A program made the translations under genes and the position numbers. From assembly GCA_021014325.1 (NCBI GenBank), contig CM037459.1, positions 15,960,501 to 16,024,500 of the forward strand: a stretch of DNA of 64,000 nt, in the 5' to 3' direction. Within the stretch, counting starts at the first letter, position 1. Every line of letters starts with the position of its first letter. The DNA is from Plazaster borealis (Eukaryota > Echinodermata > Asteroidea > Forcipulatida > Labidiasteridae). The notes beneath the pieces are model-generated. The model made no database searches. It was not told where the DNA came from and worked only from the letters and a program-made list of their open reading frames with translations. Positions 4,870-45,552 of the stretch are shown here, piece after piece.

Positions 4870-6960
4870 AGGTGTTCGGGCATTCTGCCCGGAACACCTC
4901 TTGTTTTTGTTCTTTTTAGGTGTTCGGGCATTAAGCCCGAACAACTCTTTGTTTTTGTTCGTTTTTTTGTTTTTTTGTTAGCTGTTTCGTCGCACAGCGA
5001 AACAGCTCTTGTTTTCGTTAAAGTTTTTGTTATTATTGTTTTTTTTATTTGTCTGTTTCAGTAAAAAAAGCCATTGAGATAACGCACAATCGTTCCAAGC
5101 AGCCTTTTGCATAGTTCCTAAAGAGCAATTGCAATGAAACTTTTAGGGATGAGAGGTATTGGTGCAAGGAAGGTCCTAAAAGAAATTCGTCATGATGACG
5201 TCATCACCTGTCACGTGACGTCATCTTAAAGGTTTCTATTTTAAATATTTGAAAATCCGTATCAAATCAGCCACAAGAGACCGTAGCTTTCTGTTTGCGG
5301 GATTGGGTAGGGATAAAAAAGGTCTTCATTTTATTCAGTGTGCGTGACCTCACATGACCTCTACTTCCGGTCGAAACCGGAAGTGCCTCGTAATTCAAAA
5401 GTGGCAAAAGTTACGAAGTTGCTTTCAATGATGTTAGTGTCTGGCAAGGGTGGGCAGTTCAAAAAAAATATCAATGACGTCACAATACGCAACAGCGCCC
5501 TCTAGCGACAGGTTGAAAACTCTTCAAAATGGACTTTTTGAAGATGTGTGTGGTGAAGTTTTGTGCAATCACTTCAAAATTTACACATATGGTGGTTGTC
5601 AGGCAGCCATCATATGTGTGAAGTTTTAGATCAATGACGTGCATTGGGGGTCACGTGACGCAGCATTAAAGGTGCACTTTTTGAAGTCGTATATCTCCCG
5701 AAGTATTAGTGCGATCATGTTGAAACTTGGCAAGTCGTTAGATAATGGTAAGTTCCTGTTAAACTTGTAATGACGTCATGATGACGTCATCACACGATTT
5801 GTTATGATTTTTTCATTTTTTGCCCCTTTAAGTCAGAAATTGCTAACGGAAAATGCTTTATTCCAAATTCTTTTTTAAACAGGCTTGATATGTCATTACT
5901 CATTCGAAAAATATTTGACGTCATCATGACGTCATCATTTCTCAGGTTATATTATCTTAAAGGTACAGTTTTACAAGATATATATGTAGACAATGAATTC
6001 GATCTCACAAGGCATTAAATATTGTATTATTAAGTTGATTATATACACACTACAACACTTTCATATTCACTTGATTAATTTGAAAAAATTATACACGAAA
6101 CAGCTCTGCATTTGTGCACAAATGCAATTATGTCTATTTTTTTTTAGTTTTGCTTATTCTTCTCAGTGGGCTTTGTCCGCAAGCAAACGCATACTTGTGA
6201 ACCTTTGATCAACTTGAAACTTCAGGTGGAGTTAGAACATAAGTATCAGAAGCTGAGTAAGTTGTGACGTCACGATTACGTCATCGGGTGTCAAGTTACA
6301 AACCATTTAAGTTCAATAAGTGACCATATGCCAATGCCTGTATGTCTCTGAATATTTAAGCTACGGTATTCATATTTGGGCATATGATAGATCAAGACAC
6401 GGGTAACATTTAAAAAGTTAACGCAAAATTCACATGACCTTTACTTCCGGTCGTACCGAAAGGTCAAACTCTGCCTTTGTGTTTTTTGTAAATAAATTCA
6501 ATTTTTGGTCATAACTCAAGATTGAAATTGAATTTAACATTGAAACTCATCAGACAATTGGACCTTATTATCAAGACCACACAAACTTTATGATGTCATG
6601 ATGACGTCATCAGGTAACCAATTACAACAAATCAAAGTTAAATATTTTTAAGAAATCATAACTTCTGAACCACATGGTGGATTTTGACAATCTACATATC
6701 ATCGGACAGTTCGATAGAAAATCAACAAGCGCTAAACACAAAGTGACCCCATTTGACCTTGACTTCCGGTTCAAACCGGAAGTTGAACAATTTCACAAAT
6801 TCTGATCTCAAAAACTGCGCAATATTTCAACATAAATTTTGCATCACGTTATAGATGAGTGATCCTGCTCAAACATTTGCACAGAGATGATAACTTTTTA
6901 ACCTTTGCATAGGGTCAAATCTGGACGTCAAAGTGCACGTGTCTGTTGCCACATTTTATG
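4870..6960 (+). mobile_element. Helentron-like non-autonomous element, copy 1 (3' truncated)
   Basis: Three hairpins open it at 4870-4899, 4918-4946 and 4980-5007. Their stems are GGTGTTC-GGGC, GTTCGGGC and AGCTGTTTCG, each followed by CTCTTG and a T-rich run. The body carries TGACGTCA palindromes near 5190, 5770, 5920 and 6600, and ACTTCCGG..CCGGAAGT dyads near 5364, 6445 and 6765. The last family sequence (GCTCAAACATTTGCACAGAG) is near 6870-6950. The CTAG 3' terminus seen in other copies is missing. Assignment rests on structure, and no Rep/helicase coding was found. Confidence 0.6.
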
Positions 6961-7559
6961 ATAACGTACAATAATAGTATAGGCCTACACGTTACATACA
7001 CTTTTTGTTCGTACCACACACTGGCTATCTCATGCACGCATAAGGTATGGGCGCTTTCCCGGTTCCCTTAACTGTTGACAACGCAGCCAGCGTGTGGTAC
7101 AAAAGGGCCATTGACCTTAACGGTTCAAAGTCCAATAAGACTGTAGCTAGCTGGCCCACATGTTGTGTGAAATGTACAGTTGATGTCATATACATGGTGG
7201 CGCTATACCAAGTTAATGGTCGTTTGTTTACTGCGTTCTGTGACAATTATTGGCTCTGTGATAAGTGAAACAGACTCGGAATATATGCGACGTTCGACGG
7301 TAGTCCAATGAAAAGGTGAATGCAGAAAGTTCTTGATAGCCTAGGCTTCTGTTGGTTTGGTGGTCTATCAGTGCGACACAGTGAATAAAACGGTAAGCAT
7401 CATTGCCTTTCAAATGATTCTTCATTTAATGCACAGTTATGTTATAAAGTTTACCGTTAATCATCAAGTGGTGACGTTGGTGACGTTTTTAAAACTAAGG
7501 AAGGTTTAGTTAAACTGTTGCACTGTTGAACTGTTAAGTGAAAAAGCACCAGAAACTGT
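6961..7559. other. Intron sequence between two mobile elements
   Basis: About 600 bp with open frames on both strands but no recognisable protein. It probably includes unrecognised ends of the flanking elements. Confidence 0.4.
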
Positions 7560-10639: not shown

Positions 10640-10742
10640 ATTTGTTCATCGATTCAATGATATAGCTCACACTTAAACAAAGCACTGACCCCAAAGATAG
10701 CCGAACACCTAGTGTTTCTTCCTACAAACACTAAATCTCTAG
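10640..10742 (+). mobile_element. Helentron-like 3' terminus (remnant)
   Basis: The segment matches the 3' end at 15240-15343: CACTGACCCCAA, then CCGAACACCT, then a hairpin AGTGTTT (10711-10717) with AAACACT (10726-10732), then AAATCT and the terminal CTAG (10739-10742), followed by T. This layout (subterminal inverted repeat, hairpin, about 10 nt, CTAG) is the rolling-circle transposon 3' signature. The body of this copy is not recognisable to the left. Confidence 0.65.
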
Positions 10743-11843
10743 TTAGGTGTTCGGAGAGCTTTGCTCCGAACACCTCTTATTATTGTTCGTTTTTTTTCTT
10801 TTTTTCTTCTGATTCTCTCCGTCCCTTGTCCGGTAACTAAGACACCTTTCCCAACATCACATGAACTTGAAACTTCACATATAGTTAGATATTTATTAGG
10901 AGATGAAACCGCTTTAGTTACGTCATGATGACGTCATCAGGTATCAAATTACAAGCCATTTAAGGTAAAAAAGTGACCATATGCGAAAGCCTGTATGTCC
11001 CCGAATATTACAGCTACAGTATTTATATTTGGACATATGATAGATCAAGACACGGGCAACATTTGAAAAGTAAACGCCAAATTCACATGACCTTTACTTC
11101 TGGTCGTAACGAAAGGTCAAAGTTTGCTTTGGTGTAATTCTTCAAAAATCACTTTCCCGGCAAAAACATTAACTTTCGTTTATCAGATCAACTTCAAATT
11201 TACACCATGTAAGGAACTTGATAAAACCTCAATCAAGTAGTTGTGACGTCATGATGACGTCATCAAGTGTTAAAATACAGTAAATCGAAGTTTAATCATT
11301 TAAAAATTCATAACTCAAGAAGTACATAAGCGATTATAACAATCTATACATTATCGGAGAGGTCTTGAGAAATGTAGCAAATACTACACAGAGTCTTATA
11401 CCGTTTGACCTTGTCTTCCTGTTCAAACCGGAAGTTGAAAACTTCACAATTCATACTTTAAGAAATACTCGTACTTTTTACATACACATTACTAACAATT
11501 TTTACATCATGTTGTAGATTTTTAAGCCTTCTCAAACTTTTCCACAGAGATGTTACCTTTTTGACCTTCACTTATGGTTGAAATCGGGTATACATTGACC
11601 CGCTGACTGCGGGAATAAACTGCATTGAAAACACACACAATACGCGATATAAACCAGTTAGACGGTGAGCGGCTGCTTGCTCCATTGAATCAAACCGCAA
11701 GGTTCAAAGTCCTTCAAACGTGCTTGTAGTCTAGTCTCTTTTCAAGGTTCAGGCACCTGATTTTGACATTACGCTTTGTTAGTCTCTAAAACAGCCGTCC
11801 GTGCAAACCTCGCTAACAATCAAATGTCAGATTTTTTAAAAAT

Positions 11844-13035
11844 TCATAATTCAAGAACTACACAACCGATTTTCAAACTTTGTTCAGTTATAAAATCCTT
11901 GGGCATTGGAGATTAGCCTTGGGTAACCGTGACCCCATATTGACCTTTACTTCCGGGTCAACCGGAAGTAAGACCATATCTCAAGAACTACACAACCGAT
12001 TTCAAACTTTTTTTCAGTTATAGACTCCTTGGGCATTGGAGATTAGCCTTGGGTAACCGTGACTCCATGTTGACCTTTACTTCCGGGTCAACCGGAAGTG
12101 GGACCATATCTCAAGAACTACACAACCGATTTTCAAACTGTTTTCAGTTATAGACTCCTTGGGCATTGGAGATTAGCTTCGGGTAACCGTGACCCCATGT
12201 TGACCTTTACTTCCGGGTCAACCGGAAGTAACACCATATCTCAAGAACTACTAAACCGATTTTCAAACTTGTTTCAGTTATAGACTCCTTGGGCATTGGA
12301 GATTAGCCTTGGGTAACCGTGACCCCATGTTGACCTTTACTTTCAGGTCAACTGGAAGTGAGACCATATCTCAAGAACTACACAACCGATTTTCAAACTT
12401 TTTACAGTTATAGACTCCTTGGGCATTGGAGATTAGCCTTGGGTACCGTGACCCCATGTTGACCTTTACTTCCGGGTCAACCGGAAGTGGGACCATATCT
12501 CAAGAACTACACAACCGATTTTCAAACTGTTTTCAGTTATAGACTCCTTGGGCATTGGAGATTAGCTTCGGGTAACCGTGACCCCATGTTGACCTTTACT
12601 TCCGGGTCAACCGGAAGTAACACCATATCTCAAGAACTACTAAACCGATTTTCAAACTTTTTACAGTTATAGACTCCTTGGGCATTGGAGATTAGCCTTG
12701 GGTAACCGTGACCCCATGTTGACCTTTACTTTCAGGTCAACCGGAAGTGAGACCATATCTCAAGAACTACACAACCGATTTTCAAACTTTTTACAGTTAT
12801 AGACTCCTTGGGCATTGGAGATTAGCCTTGGGTACCGTGACCCCATGTTGACCTTTACTTCCGGGTCAAACGAAAGTGACACCATATCTCAAGAACTACT
12901 CAACAGATTTTCAAACTGTTTTCAGGTATGGACTCCTTGGGCATTGGAGATTGGCCTTGGGTAACCGTGACCCCTTGTGACCTTTACTTCCGGATCAACC
13001 GGAAGTGACACCATATCTCAAGAGCTACAGTTGGT
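11844..13035. repeat. 130-bp tandem array, nine units, with three-unit higher-order period
   Basis: The marker GGGCATTGGAGATT recurs at about 11901, 12031, 12161, 12291, 12421, 12550, 12680, 12810 and 12939, a spacing of 129-130 bp. Each unit holds TTGACCTTTACTTCCGGGTCAACCGGAAGT, here given as TTGACCTTTACTTCC plus the dyad partner CCGGAAGT, and CTCAAGAACTACACAACCG. Units at 12161 and 12550 share the variant TTAGCTTCGGGTAACC, and neighbouring variants also match, giving a 389-bp higher-order repeat. The identical small open frames at 12098 and 12487 reflect this and are not genes. Confidence 0.9.
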
Positions 13036-13039
13036 TTTG

Positions 13040-14640
13040 TCGAAGCATGGTCATGGGACATGAACTCGGACATGTTGAAGGTTCTGGTACTTTGTATGAC
13101 TAGTGGTACTTACAGTTGAGATGTGTCGACGTTACGTGAACAGAGACTCATTCACTAACTTTTGATGAAAACTTATCGTCATGTTTACGAAATATTTTTC
13201 AATTACATTTAAGCAACTGCTAGTTTGTACAACAAGTATGACGTCATCCAATGATTTATTGTGTAATTAAATGTAATTAATTTTAATCAAATTTTGAATT
13301 CTTGGTTAAACAACCAGAACTAATAAATTAAAAAACGATAAATTCGTTGTTATTTTTTGAAAACAAAAATGGTATTTAAACCACTGCACGCATTCATGCA
13401 ACAACTCATGCATGTTTACTTTCGAGACACATTGTCAATGTAACTGTGAAGCTATCAAATGAAAAATGTACTGGTTAAATGTACACAATAGTGTCTAGAC
13501 TCCGAAGTTTATTTTAGTACATTGTGTCAGACAATAAACCATTGCAAGCAGCAATGCGATAAGTCATGAATGTTTTTATTTTCGAGACACATTTGTCAAG
13601 GTAACTGTGAAGCTATCAAATCGTCACCCACCGATTCCACGAACTGACACACATGTAGACAGTAAAAAGTAACAATTGTAGAAAACGGCATTTAATGTTG
13701 AAGGCTTTTAAAAAATCCCGCTTTTCTTTCAAACGTCACTAGTTTTCTGACAGTGGAGACTTGTTACTTTGAACTTTATACATGGTGCTTATGACTGCTT
13801 TTCGTCCTAAATAAATAAGCATTAGAGTTAAATATTTTGTGTTAGTACGTGAAATCAGAAATTAATTCAAAATGTTTTCGAGCTTGAAACATTAGTACCG
13901 TAGCTCAGAGTATTCCAGGATGGGAAACAACTTCTGACTCGACCAAGCATATTCTGTACATTTCAAAATTAAACTTATCTTTTTTGATAATCTTGAAAAA
14001 ATAATAGATGATTGATAGAGCGTGCTCTTACAGGTGGTGACTTCATAATTCCTTACATTATAACATCAGAGAACACAGTAGCATACTGTGTAGTCTTGGC
14101 CCAAGACGTCAGTGATCGATAGCGGATAGTGTACTGCGCTCGGTTACAACTCGCTATAGTGCGCCCTCTTGTGGCTTGAATTACCCAACTTGACTGGCTC
14201 GCACTAACGTCTTGGGAATCTCATAGCGCAAGTTGAATTGTGGGCGTCGCCGTTTTATGTAAATAAGACCGTTGTCAAGGTTGTGTAATGCATTATTTAA
14301 ATCCGCGAACAACATGGCAGCTCCCTGCACGCACGGATGTACAGTTGTACATGTACAGTACGTTGATCCGTGTGAACGCCGACCGACCCATGGTATAATG
14401 TCTAGTGACTACATACTGTGCCGCACAGTCTTATGGAGGTGTTTCTTTACCACACAGGCCATAGGACAGGAATTGAGGCGAGCGAAATCTATTGACACTG
14501 GTGACATCATGATGACGTCGCACAATGTTTTAGCCTAACAAACACATCTACAGTATCCCACAAGTACACAATCTAAAAACAGTTAATCGGACTTATACTT
14601 TTCGAGATATGGTGGTCTCAAGATTTGCTAATTATATTCA
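13040..14640. other. Atypical interior of Helentron-like copy 2
   Basis: A segment with TTTCGAGACACATTGTCAA plus GAAGCTATCAAATG occurs at 13420-13510 and again, diverged, at 13575-13640 and 14690-14830. Thus this part is itself repetitive. CATCATGATGACGTCG lies near 14505. The piece at 14480-14630 reappears inverted at about 49670-49810. No coding region is supported. Confidence 0.45.
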
Positions 14641-15343
14641 TCATACAACAAACCATTCCAAGCAGTTCTTCAACAAGGCATGGATTTTTACTTTCAGGAC
14701 ACATTTTGTCAATGTACTGTTAAACTATCAAATGTACAAATGTATGTACTGAATAATGTACAAATAGTGCCTAGACTCCAAAATTTTGTCAATGTAGCTG
14801 TAACAATCAAAACGTCACCGAGGCCACACACACGTAGATCCCAGTGAAAAGTAACAATCGGAGAAAACGGCGTTCAATGTTGAACGCTTTTTAAAATCCC
14901 GTTTACTTTCAAAACGCCTGAGTAATTTTACTGGTTTTCTTACAGCGGAGACTTGATGCTTTGATTTTCATTTTTATGGCGCTTTTGACTGCTTTTCGTC
15001 CTAAATTTGTTCAGGGTTCTCGCAACCTGATTTGGCATTACGCATTGTTAGTTTCTAAAACAGCCGTCCGTGCAAACCTCGCTAATAATCAAATGTCAGA
15101 CTTTGGAAAAATTCATAACTCGAGAACTACACAATGAATTTGTACAATCTATACATCATCGGACAGGTCTTTCAAAACCCAACAAACGCTACACAAAGTG
15201 TGACCCCATTTAATATGGAATTCCGGTTCAAAATTCAACAATCTTTTCATCAACTCAATAAAATAGTTCACACATTGACACAACACTGACCCCAATGAAA
15301 TCCGAACACCTAGTGTTTGTTCCAACAAACACTAAATCTCTAG

Positions 15344-16988
15344 TTTTTTCTTTTTTTCTTAATTAGGTGTTTGAGTGAAACTCGGAACACCTCTTGTTTT
15401 TGTTCGTTTTTTTTGTTCGTTTTTTTAATATTTATTTATTTTTATTTATTTAGGTGTTCGTGCAATAAGAGCATGAACACCTCTTGTTATTGTTCTGTTT
15501 TTTTAGGTGTTCATGCAATACAAGCACGAACACCTCTTTGTTTTTGTTCTGTTTTTAGGTGTTCGTGCAATATGAGCACGAACACCTCTTTGTTTTTGTT
15601 CTGTTTTTGAAAGTTTCTGTTTCTGAAGTTGATAATTTCACAAAATTCGTATCTCAAAAACTACTTATCACTTCAGCATAATTTTTGCATCAGGTTGTAG
15701 AACGTTGAGCCTGCTCAAACTTTTGAACAGAAATAACAACATTTTGACATTTACATCTTGTCTTATAACCACCGGCATTAAAGCGCACGTTTGTGTTGAT
15801 CCACTTAGATAACGCGAGATAGTGTAATAACACGTGTACAGATACATGTACATTGGACGTGTAGTTCAGTTTACATCAACTACATGTAAGAATAAATTTA
15901 GCATCGCTGTTACCTTGTATTGCGCACCTCGGCATAAAGATAATCCATCTAATACTTGAAAAATTCGTAACTCTTGAACCACACATTGGATTTTTACAAT
16001 CTGAACATCATCTGAAAGGTCTTTATAAAACCTAACATACGCTACACTAATTGTGACCCCGTTTGACCTTGACTTTCGGTTCAAAGTGGAAGTTGAAATT
16101 TAATGTTTCAAAATTCATAATTCCTGAACCACACAATGGATTTTTACAATCTATACATCATTGGAAAAGTAGGTAACAACTTAAAAAACGATACACAGAA
16201 TATGCCCCCATTTAACCTTGACTTCCGGTTCAAACCGGAAGATGAAATTGTATATTTGAAAAAATCATAACTGCTGAACCATACATTAGATGTTTATGAT
16301 CTATACATCATCAGAAAGGTCTCCGAAAACTTAACGAACGCTACACAAAGTGTGACCTCAATTGACCTTGACTTCCAGCTCAAACCAAAAATTTTACTTT
16401 AAGATTAAAACAATTCATAACACATGAACTATACATTGTCTTTTATAATCTATACATCATCAGCAAGTTGTCGAAAGACTTACCAAATGCTACACAAAAT
16501 GTGACCCTATTTGACCTTCACTTCCGGTTCAAACCGGAAGTTGAAGGTATTATTTGAAAAAAACGAAACTCCTAAACCAAAAAATGGGTTTTTTGATTTA
16601 ATACATCATTAGTAAGGTCTTCCAAAAGCCAACAAACGCTAAACAAAGTGTAAACCCATTTGACCTTGACTTCCGGTTCAAACCGGAAGTTGATGTTTGC
16701 ATATTTGAAACAATCATAACTCTAACCAAACAATGGATTTTTACAATCTACAATTCATCGGAAATGTCTTCAAACAATTTACAAACGCAACACAGAGTGT
16801 GACCTCATTTGACATTGACTTTCAGTTCAAACCGGAAGTTAAAGTTTTATATTGGAAAAAATTTAACTCCTGAACAAAATATTGGATAAATAAGGTAAAA
16901 TGTCGTCACCAATTCATTCAATCATAATTTGATGAGATCACTCACGAACACCTTGTTTTTGTTATTTAAACAAAAATTGAATGTCTAG
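15344..16988 (+). mobile_element. Helentron-like element, copy 3 (both ends visible)
   Basis: It begins immediately after the CTAG of copy 2 with a T-rich leader and a four-hairpin cluster. The body has dyads of ACTTCCGGTT with AACCGGAAGT near 16225, 16522 and 16675, each preceded by TTTGACCTTGACTTCCGG or a close variant and spaced roughly 130-150 bp. The 3' end is CACGAACACCTTG, a hairpin TTTTTGTT (16956-16963) with AACAAAAA (16969-16976), then TTGAATGT and CTAG at 16985-16988, followed by T. No protein-coding frame is seen. Confidence 0.65.
15365..15587 (+). repeat. Cluster of four 5'-type hairpins with compensating stem changes
   Basis: Hairpins lie at 15365-15392, 15452-15482, 15505-15535 and 15557-15587. 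All have the outline AGGTGTT..AACACCT and are followed by CTCTTG or CTCTTTG and TTTTTGTTCTG. The inner stems differ: GTTCGTGC pairs with GCACGAAC in the last, TTCATGC/GCACGAA in the third, and the first uses GTTTGAG/CTCGGAAC. Structure is kept better than sequence. Confidence 0.75.
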
Positions 16989-17812: not shown

Positions 17813-17833
17813 CGACTGCAACACTGGTTTTCA

Positions 17834-21203: not shown

Positions 21204-21208
21204 AGTAT

Positions 21209-24294: not shown

Positions 24295-24669
24295 TTGAGC
24301 CGTAGGTCAAGGTCAAATGGGGTCACTCTTTGTGTAGCGTTTGTTGAGTTTTAAAAGACCTGTCCGATGATGTATAGATTGTTGTAATCCATTTGGTAGT
24401 TATCGAGTTATGATTTTTTGAAATATTAAACTTTGATTTTCTGTAATTCGACACCTGATGACGTAATCATTATGTCACAACTTACTCGGCATCTCCTAGT
24501 TGTACTCTAACTACATGCAAAGTTTCAAGTTCATCAAAGGTTTGTAACTATGCGTTTGCTTGCGGACAAACGACTATCAGAAGAAAAAGAAGAACTAAAA
24601 AAAACAAAAAAAAACTTTAAAAAACCGAACAATAACAAAGAGTTGTTCGGGCTTAATGCCCGAACACCT
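24295..24669 (-). mobile_element. Helentron-like 5' fragment
   Basis: Read on the minus strand it begins with the hairpin at 24641-24669 (stem GTTCGGGC/GCCCGAAC), then a T-rich leader, a TGATGACGTAATCA motif near 24455 and TGACCTTGACC near 24310. The 3' half is missing. Its hairpin abuts the L2 3' end at 24672. Confidence 0.6.
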
Positions 24670-26508: not shown

Positions 26509-26509
26509 A

Positions 26510-28260: not shown

Positions 28261-28261
28261 T

Positions 28262-28767: not shown

Positions 28768-30712
28768 CTAGAGATTCAGTTTTTGTTGGTTACAAAAACA
28801 AGGTGTTTGTGAGTGATGGTGACAAAAATGTTTTCTTTGGTTTAGAAGTTAGTTTTTTTCCATTATAAAACTTCAACTTCCGGTTTGAACTGGAAGTCAG
28901 GTCAAATGGGGCCACATTTTGTGTAGTGCTTGTTGAGATTTTAAAGACCTGTTTAATGACGTAATGATTGTAAAAATCCAATGTGTGCATGGTACAGGAG
29001 ATATGTTTTTGACAAACACTAAATTTCATATTCCGGTTTGAAACTGAAGTCAAGGTCAAATGGGGTCACACTGTGTGTATCTTTTCTTGAGTTTTTACAT
29101 ACTTTTCCAATTATGTATAGATTGTCAAAACCCAATGTGTAGTTCAGAAGTTATGATTTTTTGAAATTTTAAATTTCAACACCCGGTTTTAACCGGAAGT
29201 CAAGGTCAAATGAGGTCACAATGTGTATCGCAAGTTAAGTCCTTTGAGCCCTTTCGGATGACGCATAGATGATAAAAATCCAAAGTGTGGTTCAGGAGTT
29301 ATGATTTTTTTCAAATACAACATTTCACCTTCCGGTTTGAACCAGAAGTAAAGGTCAAATGGGGTCACATTGTGTGCATCGTTTCTTAAGTTGTTACATA
29401 CTTTGACAATGATGTATATATTGTAAAAATTCAATGTGTTGTTCAGAAGTTACGATTTGTTTAAACAAAAACCGGTTTAAACCTGAAGTCAAGGTCAAAT
29501 GTAGTCAGACTTTTTGTAGCCTTTTTTTGTGTTTGAAGCCATTTTTGATGACGTATAGATGATAAAAATCCAATGTGTGGTTCAGGAGTTCTGATTTGTT
29601 CAAAAATTAAATTTCATCTTCCAGTTTGAACCGGAAGTCAAGGTCAAACGGGGTCACAATTAGTGAAGCGTATGTTAGGTTTTATAAAGACCTTTCAGAT
29701 GATGTATGGATTGTAAAAATCCAGTGTGTGGTTCAAGAGTTACGAATTTTCAAGTATTAGATGGATTATCTTTATGCCGGGGTGCACAATATACAAGGTA
29801 ACAGCGATGTATTCCTACATGTAGTTGATGTGAACTGAACTACACGTACAATTGTATGTATCTGTGCACGTGTTATTACACTATCTCGCGTTATTAAAGT
29901 AGGTCAACACAAACGTGCGCTTTAATGCCGATGGTTAAGACAAGATGTAAACGTCAAAATGTTGTTATTTCTGTGCAAAAGTTTGAGCAGGCTCAACGTT
30001 CTACAACCTGATGCAAAAATTATGCTGAAATGATAAGTAGTTTTTGAGATACGAATTTTAAGAAATTTTAAATTACTGGTTTGAACCGGAAGTCAAGGTC
30101 AAATGGGGTCACTTTTTGTGTAGCGTTTGTTGAACTTTTAACAAACTTTCCGATGATGCATAGATAAAAATCCAACATGTGGTTCAAGAGTTATGTTTTT
30201 TTTCTCAAATATTAAACTTTGATTTAATGTAATTCAATACCTGATGACGTCATCATAACATCATCACGGTTGTGTCGTCTTGATATTAAGGTTCAATTGT
30301 CTTATAAGTTTCATTGTTCAATTCAATTTCAATCTTGAGTTATGCCGTAGATACGCCCTAAAAAAGAAAAAAAACAAAGGCAATCTTTGACCTTCCGGGA
30401 CGACCGGAAGTAAAGGTCATACGATTTTGGCGTTAACTTTGCAAATGTTGCCCTAGTCTTGATCTATCCGATGCCCAACTATAAACATCAAAGCTTTCAA
30501 ATTCAAGGATATACAGCAAATAGCAAATGGTAATTTTTCGACTTTAAAAACCTTGTAATTCGACACCTGATGACGTCATCATGACGTCATTGTTAGGGTG
30601 CCGTCTTCATATTGAGGTTCAGTTGTCTGATGAGTTTCAATGTTCAATTCAGTTTCAATCTTGAGTTATTATTTAGAGAAGAGTTCCTGGGAAGAAGAAG
30701 ATGAAGAAGAAA
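28768..30712 (-). mobile_element. Helentron-like element, copy 4
   Basis: The minus-strand 3' end is at 28768: subterminal AAACACCTTG, hairpin GTTTTTGT/ACAAAAAC (28779-28799), then TGAATCT and CTAG (28768-28771). The body has seven or more units of about 130-150 bp with dyads of ACTTCCGG and CCGGAAGT next to TCAAGGTCAAATGGGGTCA. TGACGTCA palindromes lie near 30245 and 30570. The 5' leader (TTCTTCTTCATCTTC on the minus strand) ends at 30712 without its own hairpin, joined directly to the CTAG of copy 5. Confidence 0.65.
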
Positions 30713-32537
30713 CTAGAGATTCAGTTTTTGTTGGTTACAAAAACAAGGTGTTCGAGAATAATGTCATCAAATTATGAGTGAATGATTTGGTGTTGACAAG
30801 TTATGTTTTTTTCAAGTATTAAATTTCATCTTCCGGTTTGAACAGGAAGTCAAGGTCAAATGAGGTCACATTTTCTATTGTTTCTTAAATTGATACATAC
30901 TTTCCCAATAATGTATAGATTGTAAAAATCCAATGTGTTGTTTAGAAGTTATGATTTGTTGAAACATTAACTTTCACTTTCCGGTTTGAACCAGAAGTCA
31001 AGATCAAATAAGGTCACAGTGTGTAGAGTTTCTTAAATCTTTGGAGCGCTTTACGATGATGTATAGATGATAAAAATCCAATGTGTGGTTCAGGAGTTCT
31101 GATTTTTTCAAATTTTAAATTTTATCTTCCGGTTTGAACAGGAAGTAAAGGTCCATTGGGGTTACATTCTGTATATCGTTTCTAAAGTTGTTACATACTT
31201 TCCCAATGATGAATAGATTGTAAAAATCGAATGAGTTGTTCAGAAGTTAAGATATTTTTAAATATTAAATTTCAACTTCCGGTTTTAACCGGAATTCAAG
31301 TTCAAACAGGGTCACACTTTGTGTAGCCCATGTTAGGTTTATTAAGACCTTTCAGATGATGTATGGATTGTAAATATCCAATGTGTGGTTCAAGAGTTAC
31401 AACATTTTCAAATATTGAATTTTTCGCTCGTTGTTTCTTTGTATATTGCACAGTCACGCCAAATGTACTCATACATGTAGCTGTACAGTACATACATTAG
31501 TCTTCAACCGGAGCATCTTGGAACCAAGACTATACACAATGTAAACTAACTACACGTGCTCACGTGCTACGTGCATGTTCAGTGTGTGCGTAGTGCCTAC
31601 ATGCGTTAGTACACTGTTGTGCCATCGTGCGTTGTCAACGTGAGTCACGTCAAGAGACACATGCGCTTTAACCAACGTTGGCTTTAATGTCCGGTTTTGA
31701 CCAGATGTAAAAGTCAAAATGTTGTCATGTCTGTGCAAAAGTTTGAGCAGGCTCAATCATCTATCACCTGATGCAAAAACTTTGATAACAAAATACGTGG
31801 TTTTTGAGATAAGAATTTTGTAAAATTTTCAACTTCCGGTTTGAACCAGAAGTCAAGGTCAAATAGGGTCATACTTTTGTTGATCGTTTAACGACCTATC
31901 CGATGATGTATAGATTGTAAAAATCCAATATGTGGTTCAAGAGTTATGATTTGTTTACAAATATTAAACTTTGATTCATTGTAATTTAATACCCGATGAC
32001 GTCATCATGACATCATCAAGTTTGTGTCGTCTTGGTATTTAGGTTCAAATGTCTGATGAGTTTCAATGTAAAATTCAATTTCAATCTTGAGTTATGCTGT
32101 AGACAAGCTTGAAAATGATGTTTTTCAAGAAAAAAACCCAAAGGCAAACTTTGACCTAGGGGCATAACCTTGAAGAAAAGGTCATACGATTTTGACGTTA
32201 ACTTTTCAAATGTTGCCCCAGTCTTGATCTATCACATGCCCAACTATGAACATCATAGCTTTCATATTCAATGAGATACAGCAATTACCAAATGGTCATT
32301 TTTCAACTTTAAAAATCTTGTAATTTGACACCTGATGACGTCATCATGACGTTATCAACTTTGTGCCGTCTTCATATCGAGGTTCAATTGTCTGATGAGT
32401 TTCATTGTTCAATTCAATTTCATTCTTGAGTTATGCTGTAGAGAAGAGTTCCAGGGAAGAAGAAGAAGAAGAAGATGGAGAAGAAAAAAACCAAAAAACA
32501 GAACAAAAACAAAGAGGTGTTCGTGCTTGTATTGCAA
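30713..32537 (-). mobile_element. Helentron-like element, copy 5
   Basis: The 3' end is CTAG at 30713-30716, with hairpin GTTTTTGT/ACAAAAAC at 30724-30744. The body again holds ETS-like dyads (30830, 30980, 31130, 31275, 31835) and TGACGTCA palindromes (31998, 32334). The 5' leader of GAAGAAGAA (plus strand) leads to half of a hairpin, AGGTGTTCGTGC at 32515, whose second arm is lost at about 32537. Confidence 0.65.
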
Positions 32538-33398: not shown

Positions 33399-35154
33399 AG
33401 GTGTTCGTGCAATATGAGCACGAACACCTCTTGTTATTGTTCTGGTTTTTTGTTTTTTTGTTTTCTTCTTCATCTTCTTCTTCCCCTCAACTCTTCTCAC
33501 CAACAGAACTCAAAATAGAAATTTAATTGAACCTTGAAACTTGGCATATACTTGAACCTTAACATGAGCACGGCACTTGCACAATTTCGTCATTATGACG
33601 TCATCAGGTGTTGAATTACAAGGTTTTTAAAGTTGAAAAATGACCATTTGGTATTTGCTGTATCTCATTGAATATGAAAGCTATGATGTTCATAATTGGG
33701 CAGGTGATAGATCAAGACTGGGGCTACATTTCAAAAGTAAACGTCAAAATCGTATGACCTTTTCTTCAAGGTCATGCCCTAGGTCAAAGTTTGCCTTTGT
33801 TTTTTTTCTTGAAAAACATCATTTTCGGGCTTACCTACGGCATAACTCAAGATTGAAATTGAATTTTACATTGAAACTCATCAGACATTTGAACCTAAAT
33901 ATCAAGACGACACAAACTTGATGATGTCATGATGACGCCATCAGGTATTGAATTACATTAAATCAAAGTTTAATATTTGAAAAAAAATCATAACTCATGA
34001 ACGACATGTTGGATTTTTACAATCTATATATCATCGGAAAGTTCGTTAAAGGTTCAACAGACGCTACACAGAAAGTGACCCCATTTGACCTTGACTTCCG
34101 GTTCAACCCGGAAATTTAAAATTTCATAAAATTCGTATCTCAAAAACTACTTACATGTATCATTTCAGCATAATTTTTGCATCAGGTTGTAGAATGTTGA
34201 GCCTGCTCAAACTTTTGCACAGAAATAACAACATTTTGACATCTACATCTTGTCTTATGACCACCGGCATTAAAGCGCACGTTTGTGTTGATCGACCCAC
34301 TTTGATAACGCGAGATAGTGTAATAGCACGTGTACAGATACATGTACATTGAACGTGTAGTTCAGTTTACATCAGCTACATGTAGGAATACATTTAGCAT
34401 CGCTGGATGTTACCTTGTATATTGCGCACCCCGGCATAAAGATAATCCATGTAATACTTGAAAAATTCGTAACTCCTAAACCACACATTGGATTTTTACA
34501 ATCTATACATCATCTGAAAGGTCTTTATAAAACCTAACATACGCTACACTTATTGTGACCTCTTTTGACCCTGACTTCCGGTTCAAAGCGGAAGTTGAAA
34601 TTTAATGTTTCAAAATTCATAATTCCTGAACCACACAATGAATTTTTACAATCTATACATCATTGGACAAGTATGTAACAACTTAACAAACGTTATACAG
34701 AATGTGACCCCAATTGACCTTTACTTCCTGTTTAAACCGGAAGATGAAATTTAATATTTGAAAAAATCAGAACTCCTGAACCACACATTGGATTTTTATC
34801 ATCTATACATCATCAGAATGGGCTCCAAAGATTTAAGAAACGCTACACACTGTGACCTCATTTGACCTTGACTTCCGGTTCAAACCGGAAAGTGAAAGTT
34901 AATGTTTCAACAAATTGTTGGAGGTTTACAATCCATACATCATCTAAAACGTCTTCATAAACTAAACGCGCTACACAAAATGTAACCCCTATTTGACCTT
35001 AACTTCCGGTCCAAACCGGAAGTTGATGTTAAATTTTTTGAAAAATTCATAACTCCTGGACCAGGCACTGGATTGATAAGGTAGAATGTTTATTCATTCA
35101 ATCACTCCCCACAAACACCTTGTTTTTGTCACATGACAAAAACTGAATTTCTAG
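33399..35154 (+). mobile_element. Helentron-like element, copy 6 (both ends visible)
   Basis: The 5' hairpin is at 33399-33429 (GTTCGTGC/GCACGAAC), followed by CTCTTGTTATTGTTCTG and a TTC-rich leader. The body has TGACGTCATCA near 33597, a weaker palindrome near 33925, and dyads near 34095, 34575, 34725, 34875 and 35005. The 3' end is CAAACACCTTG, hairpin GTTTTTGTC/GACAAAAAC (35122-35143), TGAATTT and CTAG at 35151-35154, followed by T. This is a clean example of the full layout in plus orientation. Confidence 0.7.
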
Positions 35155-36125: not shown

Positions 36126-37807
36126 CTAGAAATTCAGTTTTTGTCATGTGACAAAAACAAGGTGTTCGTGGGGAGTGATTGAATGAATAAACATTCTACC
36201 TTATCAATCCAATGCCTGGTCCAGGAGTTATGAATTTTACATCAACTTCCGGTTTGGACCGGAAGTCAAGGGCAAATAGGGGTCACATTTTGTGTAGCGC
36301 GTTTAGTTTATGAAGATGATTTAGATGATGTATGGATTGTAAACCTCCAACAATTTGTTGGAACATTTACTTTCATATTCCGGTTTGAACCGGAAGTCAA
36401 GGTCAAATGAGGTCACAGTGTGTAGCGTTTCTTAAATCTTTGGAGCCCTTTCTGATGATGTATAGATGATAAAAATCCGATGTGTGGTTCAGGAGTTCTG
36501 ATTTTTTCAAATATTAAATTTCATCTTCCGGTTTGAACAGGAAGTAAAGGTCAATTGGGGTCACATTCTGTATATCGTTTGTTAAGTTGTTAAATACTTG
36601 TCCAATGATGTATAGATTGTAAAAATCCATCGTGTGGTTCAGGAATTATGAATTTTGAAACATTAAATTTCAACTTCCGCTTTGAACCGGAAGTCAGGGT
36701 CAAAAGAGGTCACAATAAGTGTAGCGTAAGTTAGGTTTTATAAAGACCTTTCAGATGATGTATAGATTGTAAAAATCCAATGTGTGGTTTAGGAGTTACG
36801 AATTTTTCAAGTATTACATGGATTATCTTTATGCCGGGGTGCGCAATAAAATAAGATAACACCCAGCGATGCTAAATGTATTCCTACATGTAGTTGATGT
36901 AAACTGAACTACACGTTCAAAATGCATGTTTCTGTTGTACACGCACTATAACAGTATCTCACGTTATCAAAGTGGGTCAACACAAACGTGCGCTTTAATG
37001 CCGGTGGTTATAAGACAAGATGTAAATGTCAAAATGTTATTTCTGTGCAAAAGTTTGAGCTGGCTCAACTTTCTACAACCTGATGCAAAAATTATGCTGA
37101 AATGATAAGTGGTTTTTGAGATACGAATATTATGAAATTTTAAATTTCTGGGTTGAACCGGAAGTCAAGGTCAAATGGGGTCACTTTCTGTGTAGCGTTT
37201 GTTGAACCTTTAACAAACTTTCCGATGATGTATAGATTGTAAAAATCCAACATGTCGTTCATGAGTTATGATTTTTTTTCAAATATTAAACTTTGATTTA
37301 ATGTAATTCAATACCTGATTACGTCATCATGACATCATCATGTTTGTGTCATCTTGATATTTAGGTTCAAATGTCTGATGAGTTTCAATGTAAAATTCAA
37401 TTTCAATCTTGAGTTATGCCGTAGATAAGCCCGAAAATGATGTTTTTCAAGAAAAAAAACAAAGGCAAACTTTGACCTAGGGCTTGACCTTGAAGAAAAG
37501 GTCATACGATTTTGACGTTAACTTTTGAAATGTAGCCCCAGTCTTGATCTATCACATGCCCAATTATGAACATCATAGCTTTTATATTCAATGAGATACA
37601 GCAAATACCAAATGGTCATTTTTCAACTTTAAAAACCTTGTAATTCGACACCTGATGACGTCATCATGACGAAATTGTGCAAGTGCCGTGCTCATGTTAA
37701 GTTTCAAGTATATGCCAAGTTTCAAGGTTCAATTAAATTTCTATTTTGAGTTCTGTTCTGGAGAAGAGTTCCCCGGAAGAAGAAGATGAAGAAGAAAAAA
37801 ACAACAA
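36126..37807 (-). mobile_element. Helentron-like element, copy 7
   Basis: 3' CTAG at 36126-36129 with hairpin GTTTTTGTC/GACAAAAAC at 36137-36158. The body matches copy 4 closely, including CAAGGTCAAATGGGGTCAC near 37166 and TTGACCTTGAAGAAAAGGTC near 37486. The 5' leader GAAGAAGATGAAGAAG runs into the CTAG of copy 8 without its own hairpin. Confidence 0.65.
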
Positions 37808-38965
37808 CTAGAAATTCAGTTTTTGTGACATCACAAAAACAGGGTGTTCGGTAGACCTGTTGAAATTAGCATAGCTGGTGAAATGAAAAGTATGTAGCAA
37901 TAATAATTCTTCAGATATGGATTTTTTTAAATATTAAACATTGATTAAATGTTGTGACGTCATTGATGACGTCATCATACCGAAAAAATGTGGGTGTCAT
38001 CTACACACTAAGATCTAAGTACGTGGTAAATTTCAAGACTGCAACCTTCTTAGTTAATGAGATATGAACTTTTGAATTATGAAATTTGAACTTCCGTTTT
38101 CGACTGGAAGTAAAGGTCATATAGGGTCACACTTTGTACGTGAATTGTAGAGGACGGCAAGGGCTTTTATATGGTGCAAATATCTTACATGAAGCAATTA
38201 CGGTTCTTTAAATATGTTTTTTTTTTAATATTAAACGTTGATTTATTGTTATGACGTCATCGATGACATCATCAAACCGAAATACACACATTTATATTTA
38301 AACACAAAGATCTAATTACTTAGTAAGTTTTAAGTCTCAAACATTTATAGTTCATGAGATATGACGAGTTTTCGTTATGAAAGAAAATTCAACTTCCGGT
38401 TTCGACCGGAAGTAAAGGTCATATGGGGTCATACCTAATAAAAGATTTGTAGAACTGTTCAAGGGCCTTCAGATGATTTAATGATTAAATGTGTAGCATC
38501 TTTAGTTTATAAGATATAACGTTTCTTCAAAAAAAACCTTCAACATCCGGTTTCGACCGGAAGTAAAGGTCACATGGGGTCACATTCTGTGTAAGAGTTG
38601 TAAAGGAATGTTGAACTTACATATGAAGTAAAGATCTTGTCTTTATGATTTATGGTTCTCTAGATATGACGATTTACAATATTTCTCGTTATTTTTCATT
38701 TTTCATGTTATGACGTCATCGATGACGTCATCATCCCGAAAATGTTCCTGTTTCGTCTATACACTAAGGTCTAAGTACATGACAAGTTTCAAGTCTCTAC
38801 GAGTTATATTTTTTCTGAAATCCTGCCGAGAAGGTACGGTGGGAAGAAGAAGACACGGGAAAAAAAAAACAGTACAATAACAATAGGTTTTCGGCCGTTA
38901 GCCGAACACCTAAAAAAAACAGAACAATAACAAGAGGTGTTCGTGCTCATATTGTACGAACACCT
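37808..38965 (-). mobile_element. Helentron-like element, copy 8
   Basis: 3' CTAG at 37808-37811 with a 10-bp hairpin stem GTTTTTGTGA/TCACAAAAAC at 37819-37840. Its body differs: units have TTTCGACCGGAAGTAAAGGTCA and paired TGACGTCA..GATGACGTCATCA near 37955, 38250 and 38715. Two 5' hairpins close it at 38885-38911 and 38935-38965. Confidence 0.65.
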
Positions 38966-39795: not shown

Positions 39796-41633
39796 CTAGA
39801 GGTTAAGTGTTCGTAAAAACGAACACAGAGGGGTTTCGGCGGGTGGAACAAAAATAGAATATTTGAGTTCATACTAACATGTAAGGTCCAATGCTTAGTT
39901 TGGTTGTTAACCATTTGAACTGGCTGTATAGACCGTAAGAAAAGGTCAAAGAGGGCTATGCTTCAAAAGTATGTCAAAAGTGTAAAATAATGACCTTCTG
40001 ACATGTGTCTCAGGAGATATTATCTGTATTTTTAGAACTTTCTCTTACTAACCGAAAGTTAAAGTTGTAGTAGGTCTTCATATCCATAATACATTTGACA
40101 TGTGCTGTGGTACAACAAGGCACAAAGATTATGACTTTATGATATGTGCTTCAGCAGATATGATTTTAAAGTTGAACTTGGTGTTTAGATCGGAAGGAAA
40201 GGTAAACGTTTTTGTTTTGTTTTTTGTATTTTTTGTATGAGGAAGTGTAGGAAAGGTAAAGTTGAGGCAATATTTAAATCAAATGCAATGACTTTAATTG
40301 CTGAAGGTAGTAACAATACTTTGAAAAGATCATAAGGTTGAGTGTGTGCGTACATGTAAAAGTACAGTGTTTTATAATATTTGATAGATAGTTGAAACAT
40401 ATTCTACATAACACCACAACAAACATGGAAATGGAAAATTAACACCTAAAATGTTTTGAGTTTCAAAGCCACTCACACTTTATTTTGTGCTTTAATCTGT
40501 TAAGATGTTGCTTGTAATAAATATGATAGATTATATTAAAAGAAACTATTGTTTTTGCCATGACAGTGTTTGTTAGTGTATTGGTCCATTATTTGTAACT
40601 GCTTTATTAATAATATAAACACACTGATGGACTACCTAATGCTAGATCAAAATGAAATAGATTGTGCGGTGAGAAAACTGTGAAGTTAATGTTCATGGTA
40701 AACTTTTATAGCACCCTGTTGGGTTTAACTATTTACCTCAGGCCGAAAATCGACACGGTGGGTTGAGATGAATGAGCTTATCTAATTCGAGAAAACGGAG
40801 GCGGAACACTTTTGAAAGTTGGGGGGCAAATCCAGAGGTATGTGTTTTTCAAAGTTGGGCCAACAATTTAGAAAAAGAAAAGTTAACACTATCGATTTAA
40901 AGATAAGAATCAAACTTAAATATTAAAAAAAGAATAATGTTTTCAATTTGTGGGGAAAAAAAATGTAAGTCGCGTCATATTCCCGAACACGCGACCTTCA
41001 GAAGTGGAGTTACGACCGCTAACCACTAGGCTATGAGGCCATGTCCCAAGACGGTATTATTAACACATTATAGTTTGTTACATATACATGTACATCGGGA
41101 TGTGGGAATGGACAACTCGCCACGTAACCGAGAGACGACCAGAAAAACTTAAATATCGTCAACACAAGGGAGAAAACATGACACTAACACAATTTATTGG
41201 TAAATGGTGCAGCTATAGACTGATTTTCGTGTTTGGGTTTTCATTAACCTGTCGATTTGTACAGAATTTACTTGAATTCCGTGCCGCGCCACAGGCTATT
41301 TAACGTGTACTTAAGGAATAGTATGGCAAGTCGGCATCGAAAATTATGAAGTCGTCCGCTCGCAATTTTTAAAAAAAACATCTATAAAACAAGTAAGAAT
41401 GACGCAATGGTGACGTCAAGTATTGGAATAACTAAGTTAAGTTATAAGCTTCAATTTGGAGTGTAATGTGTAACGATGGGACATTGTTTAGTACAAGATT
41501 ATTTCATAACAAAATTTGTGTACAAACCTTATGGGAATAGGGCCGTTAAGAAAAATAATAATAAAATAATAATAAAAATAATAAAAATCTCTACGATTAC
41601 AATAGGCATTTCGGCTGTTAGGCCGAAACCCCT
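39796..41633 (-). mobile_element. Helentron-like element, copy 9 (divergent subfamily)
   Basis: 3' CTAG at 39796-39799 is preceded (minus strand) by hairpin GTGTTCGT/ACGAACAC at 39807-39826. The 5' hairpin at 41604-41633 has stem TTTCGGC/GCCGAAA. The interior largely lacks the 130-bp units but contains a tRNA-like segment at 40967-41040. The ends place it in the family, but with different stem sequences. Confidence 0.55.
40967..41040 (-). repeat. tRNA-derived SINE head or tRNA-like relic
   Basis: Minus-strand GGCCTCATAGCCTAGTGGTT starts a tRNA-like sequence. TAGCCTAGTGG fits the RNA polymerase III A-box (TRGYNNARNGG). TGTTCGGGAAT sits 35-40 nt later where a B-box (GGTTCGANTCC) belongs but is imperfect. 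Acceptor pairing is poor, so it is not a functional tRNA. Confidence 0.5.
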
Positions 41634-41636
41634 AAT

Positions 41637-42796
41637 TATGTGATTGATTATCTGAGGGTGTGCAATGTATCTTATAACATCAATGCAAATGTATTCCTAC
41701 TTGTAGTTTTGGTGCTAGACGTTGTTCATTATCACTCAACTATTGCGATTCTCCGCTGTGCACTCAGCGCTCGATGTTACTAAAAACTTTATTCCCAACA
41801 GCGCCCTCTTTCGTGGATGAAAGAGAGCGCTGTTGGGAATTTCCCCCCAAAAAGTTCGCGCCACATCACAGTCAGCGCTTGCACTGCATGTAGCGTACAT
41901 AGTGTGCGTTGTTGATCAAAATGGGGTAACGCGTGGGTCAACAGGTGCTTTGACGTTCCTTTTTCGATTAAATATAAAGGTAAAAATGTAGTTATTTCTG
42001 TGCAAAAGATTGAGCAGGATTGCTGTTTTACAATCTGAAACAACATTATGCTGAAATGATCAGTAGTTTTAAAGACATGAATACGATAAGATTTTATGAA
42101 GCGACCTATCCGATCATGTGTAGATTGTCAAAATCCAAATTAGGGTTTGTAAGTTATGATTTTTAAAAATTTTAAACTTTGATTTATTGTAATTTTATGC
42201 CCGATGACGTCATTATAACGTAATTAAGTCTGTGTTGTCTTGATACTAAGGTTCAACTATCTGTAGAGTTTCAACGTTCAAATCAATCTCAATCTTGAGT
42301 TATTCCGTAGATAAGCTCGAAAGTTGTTTTTTGATGAAAAAAACCGAAGGCGAACTTCGACCCAGGAAGTTAAGGTCGTACGATTTTGGCGTTAACTTTT
42401 CAAATGTTGCCCAAGTCTTTTTCTATCCGATGCCCAAGTATGAACATCATAGCTTTTATATTCGTTGAGATACAGCAAAAAGCAACTGGTCATTTTTCAA
42501 CTTTAAAAACTTTGTAATGACGTCATCATTCCAAAAAAGTGGCGGTTTCATCTACTCACTATTGCCTATGTACATAGTAAGTTTTAAGTTTGTACAAGCT
42601 TTACTTTTGTTCAAAATTGCTGGAGAAGGTTCGGAGAGAAAGAAGAAGACGAGGAAAACCCCCCCAAAACATAACAATAACAAAAGTTGTTCGGCTGTTA
42701 GCCGAACACCTATTGTTTGGCAATTAGCCGAACACCTAAAAAAAAAAACCAGAACAATAACCAAGAGGTGTTCGTGCTTGTATTGCACGAACACCT
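41637..42796 (-). mobile_element. Helentron-like element, copy 10 (3' truncated)
   Basis: Three 5' hairpins lie at 42685-42711 (GTTCGGCT/AGCCGAAC), 42713-42737 and 42766-42796 (GTTCGTGC/GCACGAAC). They are followed in minus direction by a GAAGAAGACG leader, TGACGTCATCA near 42520 and 42205, and family body sequence to about 41640. The 3' hairpin and CTAG are absent. Confidence 0.6.
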
Positions 42797-44439: not shown

Positions 44440-44805
44440 GTAAATACCCAGGGGTATAAATGTGTACCTGCAAGGGGGTAGAGGTTGTTATAGTCTTGAT
44501 TGGCGAAAATAGTTTTTGTTTTAGTCGGGTCCAAGTGCCAAAAGTGTCAAGATGTTGGTTTTGAGACACTTGTTTGTTTGATTTATATAGGGTTCGACAC
44601 CGCTGACCATTAAGAAAACAAACGTCGCCAATCAAGACTAATAAGGTTGTCATTGTGTTTGAAAAAGCCTTCAGAGTGCCCTGGCAGCCCTGGTCTGTAT
44701 ACTCCCAGTGAGCTGAGAAAGATTATAGGAATGCTATTGGCCCCATGACCAGGGCTCTAATGTAAAGGGCATTAACACATTTTTGTAAAATGCGCTTAAC
44801 ATGTA
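44440..44805. other. Intron 3, first part
   Basis: A 365-bp stretch including an inverted pair: AGTCTTGATTGGCGA at 44492 and TCGCCAATCAAGACT at 44625, which can fold the 150 bp between them. No gene. Confidence 0.5.
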
Positions 44806-45552
44806 AGAGCTATTCGGGCACCACCCGAACAACTCTTTGAAATTGTTCTGCTTTTTTTTCCCCCCTTCACATTCTTCTTCTCACTGTACCTTCCTCGGCA
44901 AGACTTCCCTTACTTGCAATGCTTACAGAGACTTGAAACTTCTCACATAAATAGACCTTAACTTCTACATGTACATGTACATGTACATGTACCTAACAGT
45001 TCAAACGTCATGATGACATCATCAGGTGTCGAATTACACTAAATATATAAAAAAAATCATGACTCCTAAACCATATGATGGATTTTTACAATCTATACAT
45101 CATCGGAAAGGTCTTGAAAACTGAATTTAAACACTTTACACTATTTTTGACCTTTTCTTCCCGTTCAAACCGGAAGTTGAAAATTTAAAAAATTCATATC
45201 TCAACTAATTATCATTTAATCACAATTTTCAGTTCATGTTGTAGATCATCTTTGAGGCTGTCCAAACCTTTGCACAGAGATGACGCCAGTTTGACCTTTT
45301 ACTTCCAGTCGAAACTGGACGTTAAAGCGTCTGTTCGTATTGACCCACAGACATTGACAATGCAAAGAACTGCTACAGTTTACACTAAGTTTACTGTACA
45401 TGTAGACATTGCGCGTATGGATACACTCAACATCTTCATGACAGTGCGGTGTAGTCTCTGTTCAAGGTTTTACACTTGGTTAGTCTTTTATACAGCTGTC
45501 TACGCCAAGCCTCTTTAACAGTCAAATGTGAGCTGAAAAGGAATCTTAAAGC
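44806..45552 (+). mobile_element. Helentron-like element, copy 11 (3' truncated)
   Basis: The 5' hairpin is at 44806-44836 (ATTCGGG/CCCGAAC within AGAGCT..AACTCT), then a T-rich leader and TTCTTCTTCTCACTGTACC. A short ACATGT microsatellite lies at 44967-44992, then CATGATGACATCATCAGG near 45009, a dyad AAACCGGAAGT near 45166, and the GCACAGAGATGACG block near 45275. It is lost at the hAT insertion starting 45561. Confidence 0.6.

What the first reader, a model, noticed from the sequence alone, without database searches (positions are those of the whole stretch)
4870..45552. Helentron-like rolling-circle family whose terminal hairpins covary
Seen: repeated elements with a 5' hairpin AGGTGTT..AACACCT, a T/TTC-rich leader, a subterminal inverted CGAACACCT, a 3' hairpin, 7-12 nt and CTAG, usually followed by T. 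Inner stem bases change in compensating pairs: GTTCGGGC/GCCCGAAC (4918), GTTCGGAG/CTCCGAAC (10745), GTTCGTGC/GCACGAAC (15557), GTTCGGCT/AGCCGAAC (42685), TTTCG/CGAAA (4980). 3' stems also vary in pairs: GTTTTTGT/ACAAAAAC, AGTGTTT/AAACACT, GTGTTCGT/ACGAACAC. Known: Helitrons end in hairpin plus CTRR, and Helentrons have asymmetric inverted repeats. Inference: selection acts on fold, perhaps as initiation and termination structures with diversifying specificity.
Basis: partly seen in the sequence, partly recalled or inferred. Interest (0 to 1): 0.85.

Follow-up and report, generated by a model that had tools for sequence, protein, structure and literature searches.

The report
Nested hairpin-ended rolling-circle transposons
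The window is full of non-coding transposons of an already described rolling-circle kind, whose end hairpins differ between subfamilies in matching pairs and which often insert into the T-rich start of one another.

Summary
In detail: 5' hairpins, T-rich leader, inverted CGAACACCT, 3' hairpin and CTAG|T are present. An outer-stem pattern has 2457 places in the window's own 560.6-Mb genome, reversed control 0.

The anatomy is Helitron2/HINE (Helentron-associated). PMC3627910 already described both hairpins and the asymmetric repeats, noted compensatory changes in two related elements and proposed a termination role. The headline is therefore not new.

Quantified here: in the first 100 listed places (all on one contig, 52 groups), 85 have a complementary inner stem, shuffled mean 40.6, maximum 55. 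Pairing is kept between a few subfamilies; 12 of 15 departures are unpaired changes, 3 belong to another type. A second family differs in both hairpin arms and in the distant 3' repeat together.

New detail: many hairpin stacks are same-strand insertions into another element's leader, clearest at 37808-38911 with 33399-35154 as empty-site sister. At 18 sites tested, 13 joined flanks run on into another element's start (2 weak, 1 matched only an overlapping locus); 5 do not.

No autonomous partner with matching ends was found (3 Rep loci read). Selection versus templated repair is unresolved.

The parts
4870..4899 (+). 5' hairpin, A family, GGGC type with bulged G
4918..4946 (+). 5' hairpin, A family, GGGC type with AACAACT arm
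4980..6137 (+). Element of the B family (AGCTGTTTCG hairpin; 3' repeat CGAAACAGCT at 6096-6105; 3' hairpin; end CTAT), lying behind two A-family hairpins; 95% identical to the L005 copy
10702..10742 (+). 3' end of an A-family element: CGAACACCT, AGTGTTT hairpin, CTAG
10745..15343 (+). A-family element, GGAG type (5' hairpin 10745-10775, 3' end 15303-15343)
15365..15587 (+). Stack of four 5' hairpins (15365, 15452, 15505, 15557) separated by T-rich linkers
16945..16988 (+). 3' end of a GTGC-type element, followed by a 20-base match to a GTGC-type leader and then other sequence
24641..24669 (-). 5' hairpin, GGGC type with AACAACT arm
28768..28809 (-). 3' end (GTTTTTGT hairpin, CTAG followed by G)
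30713..30754 (-). 3' end (GTTTTTGT hairpin, CTAG) followed by a GTGC-type leader
32515..32523 (-). Right arm of a 5' hairpin whose left arm is broken, with GTGC-type leader
33399..35154 (+). GTGC-type element with un-nested leader; serves as empty-site sister of the 38965/36126 host
36126..36168 (-). 3' end of the GTGC-type host element that starts at 38965
37808..38911 (-). GGCT-type element (1104 bp) inserted in the T-run of the GTGC-type host's leader
38935..38965 (-). 5' hairpin of the host element
39796..39813 (-). 3' end with GTGTTCGT/ACGAACAC hairpin and CTAG; its 3' repeat further upstream is decayed
42685..42796 (-). Stack of three 5' hairpins (GTGC at 42796, a broken GGCT, GGCT at 42711)
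48217..48246 (+). 5'-type hairpin of a third type, AGCTGTTCC..GGAACAGCT; a similar one at 49425-49454

Best explanation
The repeats are non-autonomous rolling-circle transposons with Helitron2/HINE anatomy, probably in an echinoderm. The 5' terminus AGGTGTTCG is the left arm of a terminal hairpin and also the inverse of the CGAACACCT in front of the 3' hairpin. By the published proposal (PMC3627910) pairing of the 5' repeat with the 3' repeat opens the 5' hairpin and sets the endpoint of copying. Three partners that must pair would make both hairpin arms and the distant repeat change together when a new lineage arises. Elements insert between Ts, and the T-rich leader just behind each 5' hairpin is itself a frequent target, so elements stack in each other's leaders, mostly on the same strand. 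Shown: the anatomy, paired differences between subfamilies, and leader nesting at intact examples. Inferred: rolling-circle movement, the termination role, selection as the cause, and the origin of multi-hairpin composites (copying from the outermost 5' end to the first 3' end, as proposed for Fusarium in PMC5148889).
For: Anatomy at the ends read in the window and in genomic loci. Inner stems complementary at 85 of 100 listed places against a shuffled mean of 40.6, maximum 55 of 2000 shuffles. 3' repeat follows the 5' arm over 24 5'-3' pairs: 237 against 141, 0 of 5000 shuffles. GGCT type: 39 places of a pattern that requires pairing, control 0. Empty site of the 37808-38911 insertion with no duplication beyond Ts. 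13 of 18 joined flanks continue into another element's 5' region. 20 of 51 distinct 3' ends are followed by a leader match of 130 bits or more outside their own locus (my count). Leaders are unusually T-rich. The genome encodes a Helentron-type protein with OTU, DUF6570, Helitron_like_N, PIF1 and Exo_endo_phos.
Against: No Rep-bearing element with these ends was found: none in the 18.5 kb around the C7 Helentron nor in two further Rep loci. Few independent stem exchanges: the 100 places fall into 52 groups and three main types. Within the A family alone the 5'-3' excess is small (90 against 84.9, 47 of 5000; n=10), and L060 432-2628 disagrees. 5 of 18 hairpin stacks do not resume a leader, and L061 has 11 hairpins but 5 detected 3' ends. 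The right flank alone does not tell outer from inner B subtype (L003 and L006 hit a CT-type leader first). No movement has been observed.
Confidence: 0.8

Rival explanations
1. The paired stem changes arise by templated repair: one hairpin arm, folded back in single-stranded DNA, is copied into the other, so complementarity is a by-product and no selection on fold is needed.
For: Inner stem and loop differ as a block between types (GTGC with aatatga/aatacaa, GGAG with agctttg, GGCT with aac). Rolling-circle copying passes through single strands (recalled knowledge).
Against: The 3' repeat, 1 kb or more away, also follows the 5' arm between the A and B families, which hairpin copying alone does not explain. 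The bulged G of the GGGC type (30 of 31 copies) and the G.A mismatch of the AACAACT arm were not corrected.
Confidence: 0.3
2. Hairpin stacks and head-to-tail series come from slippage or unequal exchange of a 50-bp unit, or from concatemers made by rolling-circle read-through, not from insertion into leaders.
For: Regular 48-63-bp spacing; near-identical neighbours; 11 hairpins against 5 detected 3' ends in L061; 5 of 18 stacks without a resuming leader.
Against: At 38965-36126 and in L007 the outer hairpin and the leader that resumes are of one family and the inserted element of another. The joined flank aligns with an un-nested sister. A concatemer would restart with a 5' hairpin after CTAG; these restart inside the leader at differing places.
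Confidence: 0.25
3. Foldback or MITE-like cut-and-paste elements that merely carry inverted repeats.
For: Inverted repeats near both ends; the window ORFs that were searched are retroelement pieces, so no transposase is seen in the copies.
Against: The inverted repeats are asymmetric, one terminal and one in front of a separate hairpin; the 3' end reads CTAG at nine window ends; the one clean empty site shows no duplication beyond Ts.
Confidence: 0.04

Closest known systems
Helitron2 group (PMC3627910; abstract and passages read)
   Same: 5' hairpin that contains the 5' asymmetric repeat; 3' repeat directly upstream of a 3' hairpin; compensatory changes noted in two related elements; pairing of the two repeats proposed to set the endpoint.
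   Different: Other sequences and host; here several subfamilies and two families with many copies, and a count over 100 listed places; CTAG end; T-run target.
HINE / DINE-1, non-autonomous Helentrons (PMC4067079, passages read)
   Same: Sub-terminal inverted repeats, palindromic or with a short inverted partner, 3' stem-loop, central repeats, TT/T-rich target, no target duplication.
   Different: End sequences; 5' hairpin at the terminus; stacks of hairpins of mixed types; no partner with the same ends found here.
Cg_HINE elements of the Pacific oyster (PMC7492417, passages read)
   Same: Left module with repeat plus inverted partner and microsatellite, central tandem repeats, right module with repeat and palindrome, T-rich insertion sites.
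   Different: Leader here is T/TTC-rich rather than GTCY-type microsatellite; leader nesting is not in the passages that I read.
FoHeli elements of Fusarium oxysporum (PMC5148889, passages and section 10 read)
   Same: Several 5' termini with a single 3' terminus; self-insertion proposed as their source.
   Different: There one nested example and an inferred route; here a nested intermediate with an empty-site sister, further nested sites, and up to 11 hairpins in a stack.

Membership tests
Helitron2 / HINE | 5' terminal hairpin that includes the 5' asymmetric inverted repeat | tested here: met
Helitron2 / HINE | 3' repeat just upstream of a 3' hairpin near the end | tested here: met
Helitron2 / HINE | T-rich/TT target without target-site duplication | tested here: met
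   one clean empty site; joined flanks at 13 of 18 sites; a duplication of one or two Ts cannot be seen in a T-run
Helentron (autonomous partner) | Rep/helicase/endonuclease element with the same ends | tested here: inconclusive
   27 PF14214 matches; a Helentron-type frame on C7 without these ends in 18.5 kb; two other Rep loci without them; 401-base looks at C505 and C569 show no hairpin
Canonical Helitron (Helitron1) | insertion between A and T, 5' TC | tested here: not met
   starts AGGTGTT after T; target is a T-run
Canonical Helitron (Helitron1) | 3' hairpin followed by CTRR | tested here: met
   CTAG at nine window ends; the B end at 6137 reads CTAT
Helitron superfamily | rolling-circle copying through a single-stranded or circular intermediate | not testable with these tools
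   no reads or bench data

The most novel reading that the evidence does not exclude
The T-rich leader behind the 5' hairpin is a built-in landing pad: it draws related elements into a harmless place, and each landing adds a 5' hairpin of another type. This makes composite elements with several interchangeable start signals, by which subfamilies could share one replication protein and shift end specificity while the three-way pairing (both hairpin arms and the 3' repeat) is kept.
Probability: 0.15. Interest if true: 0.65.

Novelty: new member of a known kind. Interest (0 to 1): 0.42.

Why it matters
How Helentron-type transposons start and stop copying is poorly known. A genome with thousands of copies in several stem types, with natural matched sets of 5' and 3' ends, makes the proposed 5'-3' pairing directly testable. 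Nested copies give clean empty sites that are hard to get in T-rich targets, and they explain head-to-tail series and stacked hairpins without concatemers.

Tried and rejected
One pattern for the 5' right arm plus leader had no match in viral contigs and none in prokaryote genome contigs. A plasmid search with the Gypsy ORF DNA found none. For the autonomous partner, a shared homology start at base 739 upstream of the C7 Helentron looked like an element end, but C505 and C569 run on upstream without a hairpin, so it was dropped. The generic hairpin+CTAG scan was dropped as a test (41 against 13-23 in shuffles). A hand-made table of seven stem types (83 of 84 cells paired; only the observed arrangement of 5040 does as well) is not used as proof, because the types were chosen as hairpins and the bulge base of the GGGC type was left out. 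Genome counts of B-family 5' ends and A-family 3' ends were asked for and never answered. The reading 'one hairpin in a stack equals one nested body' was rejected (L061). In one search, 30 of 51 3' ends have a leader match at E<=1e-4; the 10 under 130 bits are not counted as nests (at 10742 the match begins 48 bases in, behind the next hairpin). A claim of mine that no departure from the stem types is compensated was withdrawn.

Full report
What is there. The window lies in a 560.6-Mb, 717-contig eukaryote assembly. In the 120 listed relatives of a reverse-transcriptase frame at 7568-8653 the best named ones are Apostichopus japonicus (73%) and Asterias amurensis (54%); a fish is also named at 44-46%. 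An echinoderm is likely, not proven. Between about 4.9 and 49 kb there are copies of short elements on both strands. Intact ones begin after TT with a hairpin AGGTGTTCGxxx-loop-yyyCGAACACCT, followed by CTTGTTNTTGTTC-like sequence and a T/TTC-rich leader. Then comes a body with 130-150-bp repeats that carry ACTTCCGGTT..AACCGGAAGT and TGACGTCA palindromes, then CGAACACCT, a 3' hairpin, some bases and CTAG. Genome-wide the outer stem plus CTT occurs at 2457 places, reversed control 0.

Two families and several stem types. The A family (AGGTGTTCG) has at least four inner stems: GTGC, GGGC and GGAG and GGCT (39 places of a pattern that itself requires pairing). The hairpin at 4980 belongs to a B family. 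Genomic copies have AGCTGTTTCG../..CGAAACAGCT at the 5' end, CGAAACAGCT again before the 3' hairpin GCATTTGT/ACAAATGC, and end in CTAG. A third type, AGCTGTTCC../..GGAACAGCT, is at 48217.

Covariation. The first 100 places listed by the genome pattern lie on contig C1 and fall into 52 groups more than 1 kb apart. The pattern fixes the outer stem but not the inner one, so only the inner stem is tested. In 85 of 100 the five inner pairs are complementary (GTGC 51; GGGC 30, with one bulged G on the 3' arm; GGAG 4); shuffling 3' arms among copies gives a mean of 40.6 and a maximum of 55 in 2000 shuffles. The shuffle does not remove relatedness. Of the 15 departures, 12 are changes from the GTGC or GGGC type that are not matched on the other side. 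Three are copies of a short type with a TTCA loop that the test does not suit; one of these pairs T-A where the others have C-G, with further mismatches. So pairing is kept between source lineages and decays in copies, as selection on active elements predicts, and independent exchanges are few. The 3' repeat follows the 5' arm: over 24 5'-3' pairs the summed match is 237 nt against a shuffled mean of 141, and 0 of 5000 shuffles reach it. This is mainly the contrast of A with B. Within A (n=10) it is small (90 against 84.9; 47 of 5000). At the tenth base of the A arm 9 of 10 pairs agree by my eye count (Fisher one-sided 0.024); L060 432-2628 disagrees, and the decayed 39796 end was counted as agreeing.

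Nesting. At 38965-36126 on the minus strand a GTGC-type hairpin and part of a leader are followed by a complete 1104-bp GGCT-type element (38911-37808); after its CTAG the GTGC-type leader and body go on. The joined flanks align with the un-nested sister at 33399-35154, apart from T-run lengths and a few base changes. The same test on 20 candidate rows, that is 18 distinct sites, finds 13 whose joined flank runs across the junction into the 5' region of another element. Two are weak (window 4918, 69.5%; L023, 77%). For L061 the best match in that call is an overlapping locus, although its right flanks match other loci. Five do not run on (window 15505, window 42796, L011, L015, L060_379). The joined sequence contains the outer hairpin, so its best match leans to the outer type. 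On the right flank alone, the outer family is recovered where families or types differ clearly (window 37808, GTGC; L007, GGGC), but not for the B subtypes in L003 and L006. Of 51 distinct 3' ends, 20 have a same-strand leader match of 130 bits or more outside their own and nearby loci (my count). With own-locus matches allowed it is 23 on the same strand and 1 on the other (L032). These loci were partly chosen by similarity to hairpin-bearing DNA, so this is no genome rate. In L009-L028, taken by rank from a search with leader DNA, 7 of 19 ends have a leader match at E<=1e-4, 4 of them strong. 70% of 50 leaders have T>=0.6 in their first 40 nt (from 14 nt past the hairpin), against 0.6% of 40-mers in the window, which itself holds leaders. 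A plain liking for T-runs may therefore be enough.

Composite elements. L061 has 11 hairpins and 5 detected 3' ends. For Fusarium it is proposed that copying from the outermost 5' end to the first 3' end of a nest makes elements with several 5' termini (PMC5148889, passages and section 10 read). The five sites that do not run on could be such composites; slippage or deletion is not excluded.

Autonomous partner. PF14214 (Helitron_like_N) has 27 matches, some of them two rows of one locus. The longest frame, on C7, also carries OTU and DUF6570, PIF1 and Exo_endo_phos, the make-up of a Helentron. No A or B ends lie in the 18.5 kb read around it. Two further loci (L066, L067) carry Helitron frames without A or B ends; that they lack an endonuclease is my reading of the frames, not a domain search. 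The partner is unknown.

What is known already. PMC3627910 (passages) defines Helitron2 by these two hairpins and asymmetric repeats, reports compensatory changes in two related Culex elements, and proposes that 5'-3' repeat pairing destroys the 5' hairpin and sets the endpoint. PMC4067079 (passages) and PMC7492417 (passages) describe non-autonomous forms with microsatellite, central tandem repeats and T-rich targets. Seven literature searches listed nothing closer on covariation or leader nesting, within an open-access library only and judged from listings apart from the four papers named.

Verdict. The finding is real and rightly read as Helentron-like, but its main claim is a larger case of something already noted. 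The added value is the three-partner correspondence between two families and the evidence that many stacked hairpins come from insertion into each other's T-rich leaders.

Noticed in passing
G000:C7 (24.8 Mb), 4.4-12.9 Mb: 16 of the 27 Helitron_like_N matches of the genome lie on this one contig, including a 2461-codon open frame of Helentron make-up; the cause of the clustering is unknown.
   Followed up: partly
window 11851-13029 and bodies of other elements: Central 130-150-bp repeats carry ACTTCCGGTT..AACCGGAAGT and TGACGTCA palindromes, which resemble ETS and CREB/ATF sites (recalled motifs); many copies could act as regulatory sequence.
   Followed up: no
window 62168-64000 (-): Open 611-codon frame with Gypsy-type integrase relatives, best 67% identical.
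   Followed up: partly
window 7568-9137 (+) and 24746-25758 (-): Reverse-transcriptase frames of a non-LTR retroelement; the first lies inside the A-family element that ends at 10742.
   Followed up: partly
window 18014-18055: Perfect 18-bp-stem hairpin GCAGGGTCGTGGCCGTGC with a 6-nt loop, unlike the element ends; not identified.
   Followed up: no
GGGC-type hairpins, e.g. window 4870-4899: A bulged G on the 3' arm is kept in 30 of 31 sampled copies whose 5' arm reads CGGGC, while the 3' repeat of the one paired GGGC element (L060 7430-9658) has no such extra base.
   Followed up: partly
L023 1822-4485: A B-type outer hairpin with a 14-bp stem (AGCTGTTTCGGTGT) lies upstream of a second 3' end with a different hairpin (GTGTTTGT/ACAAACAC), which suggests a further B subfamily.
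   Followed up: no
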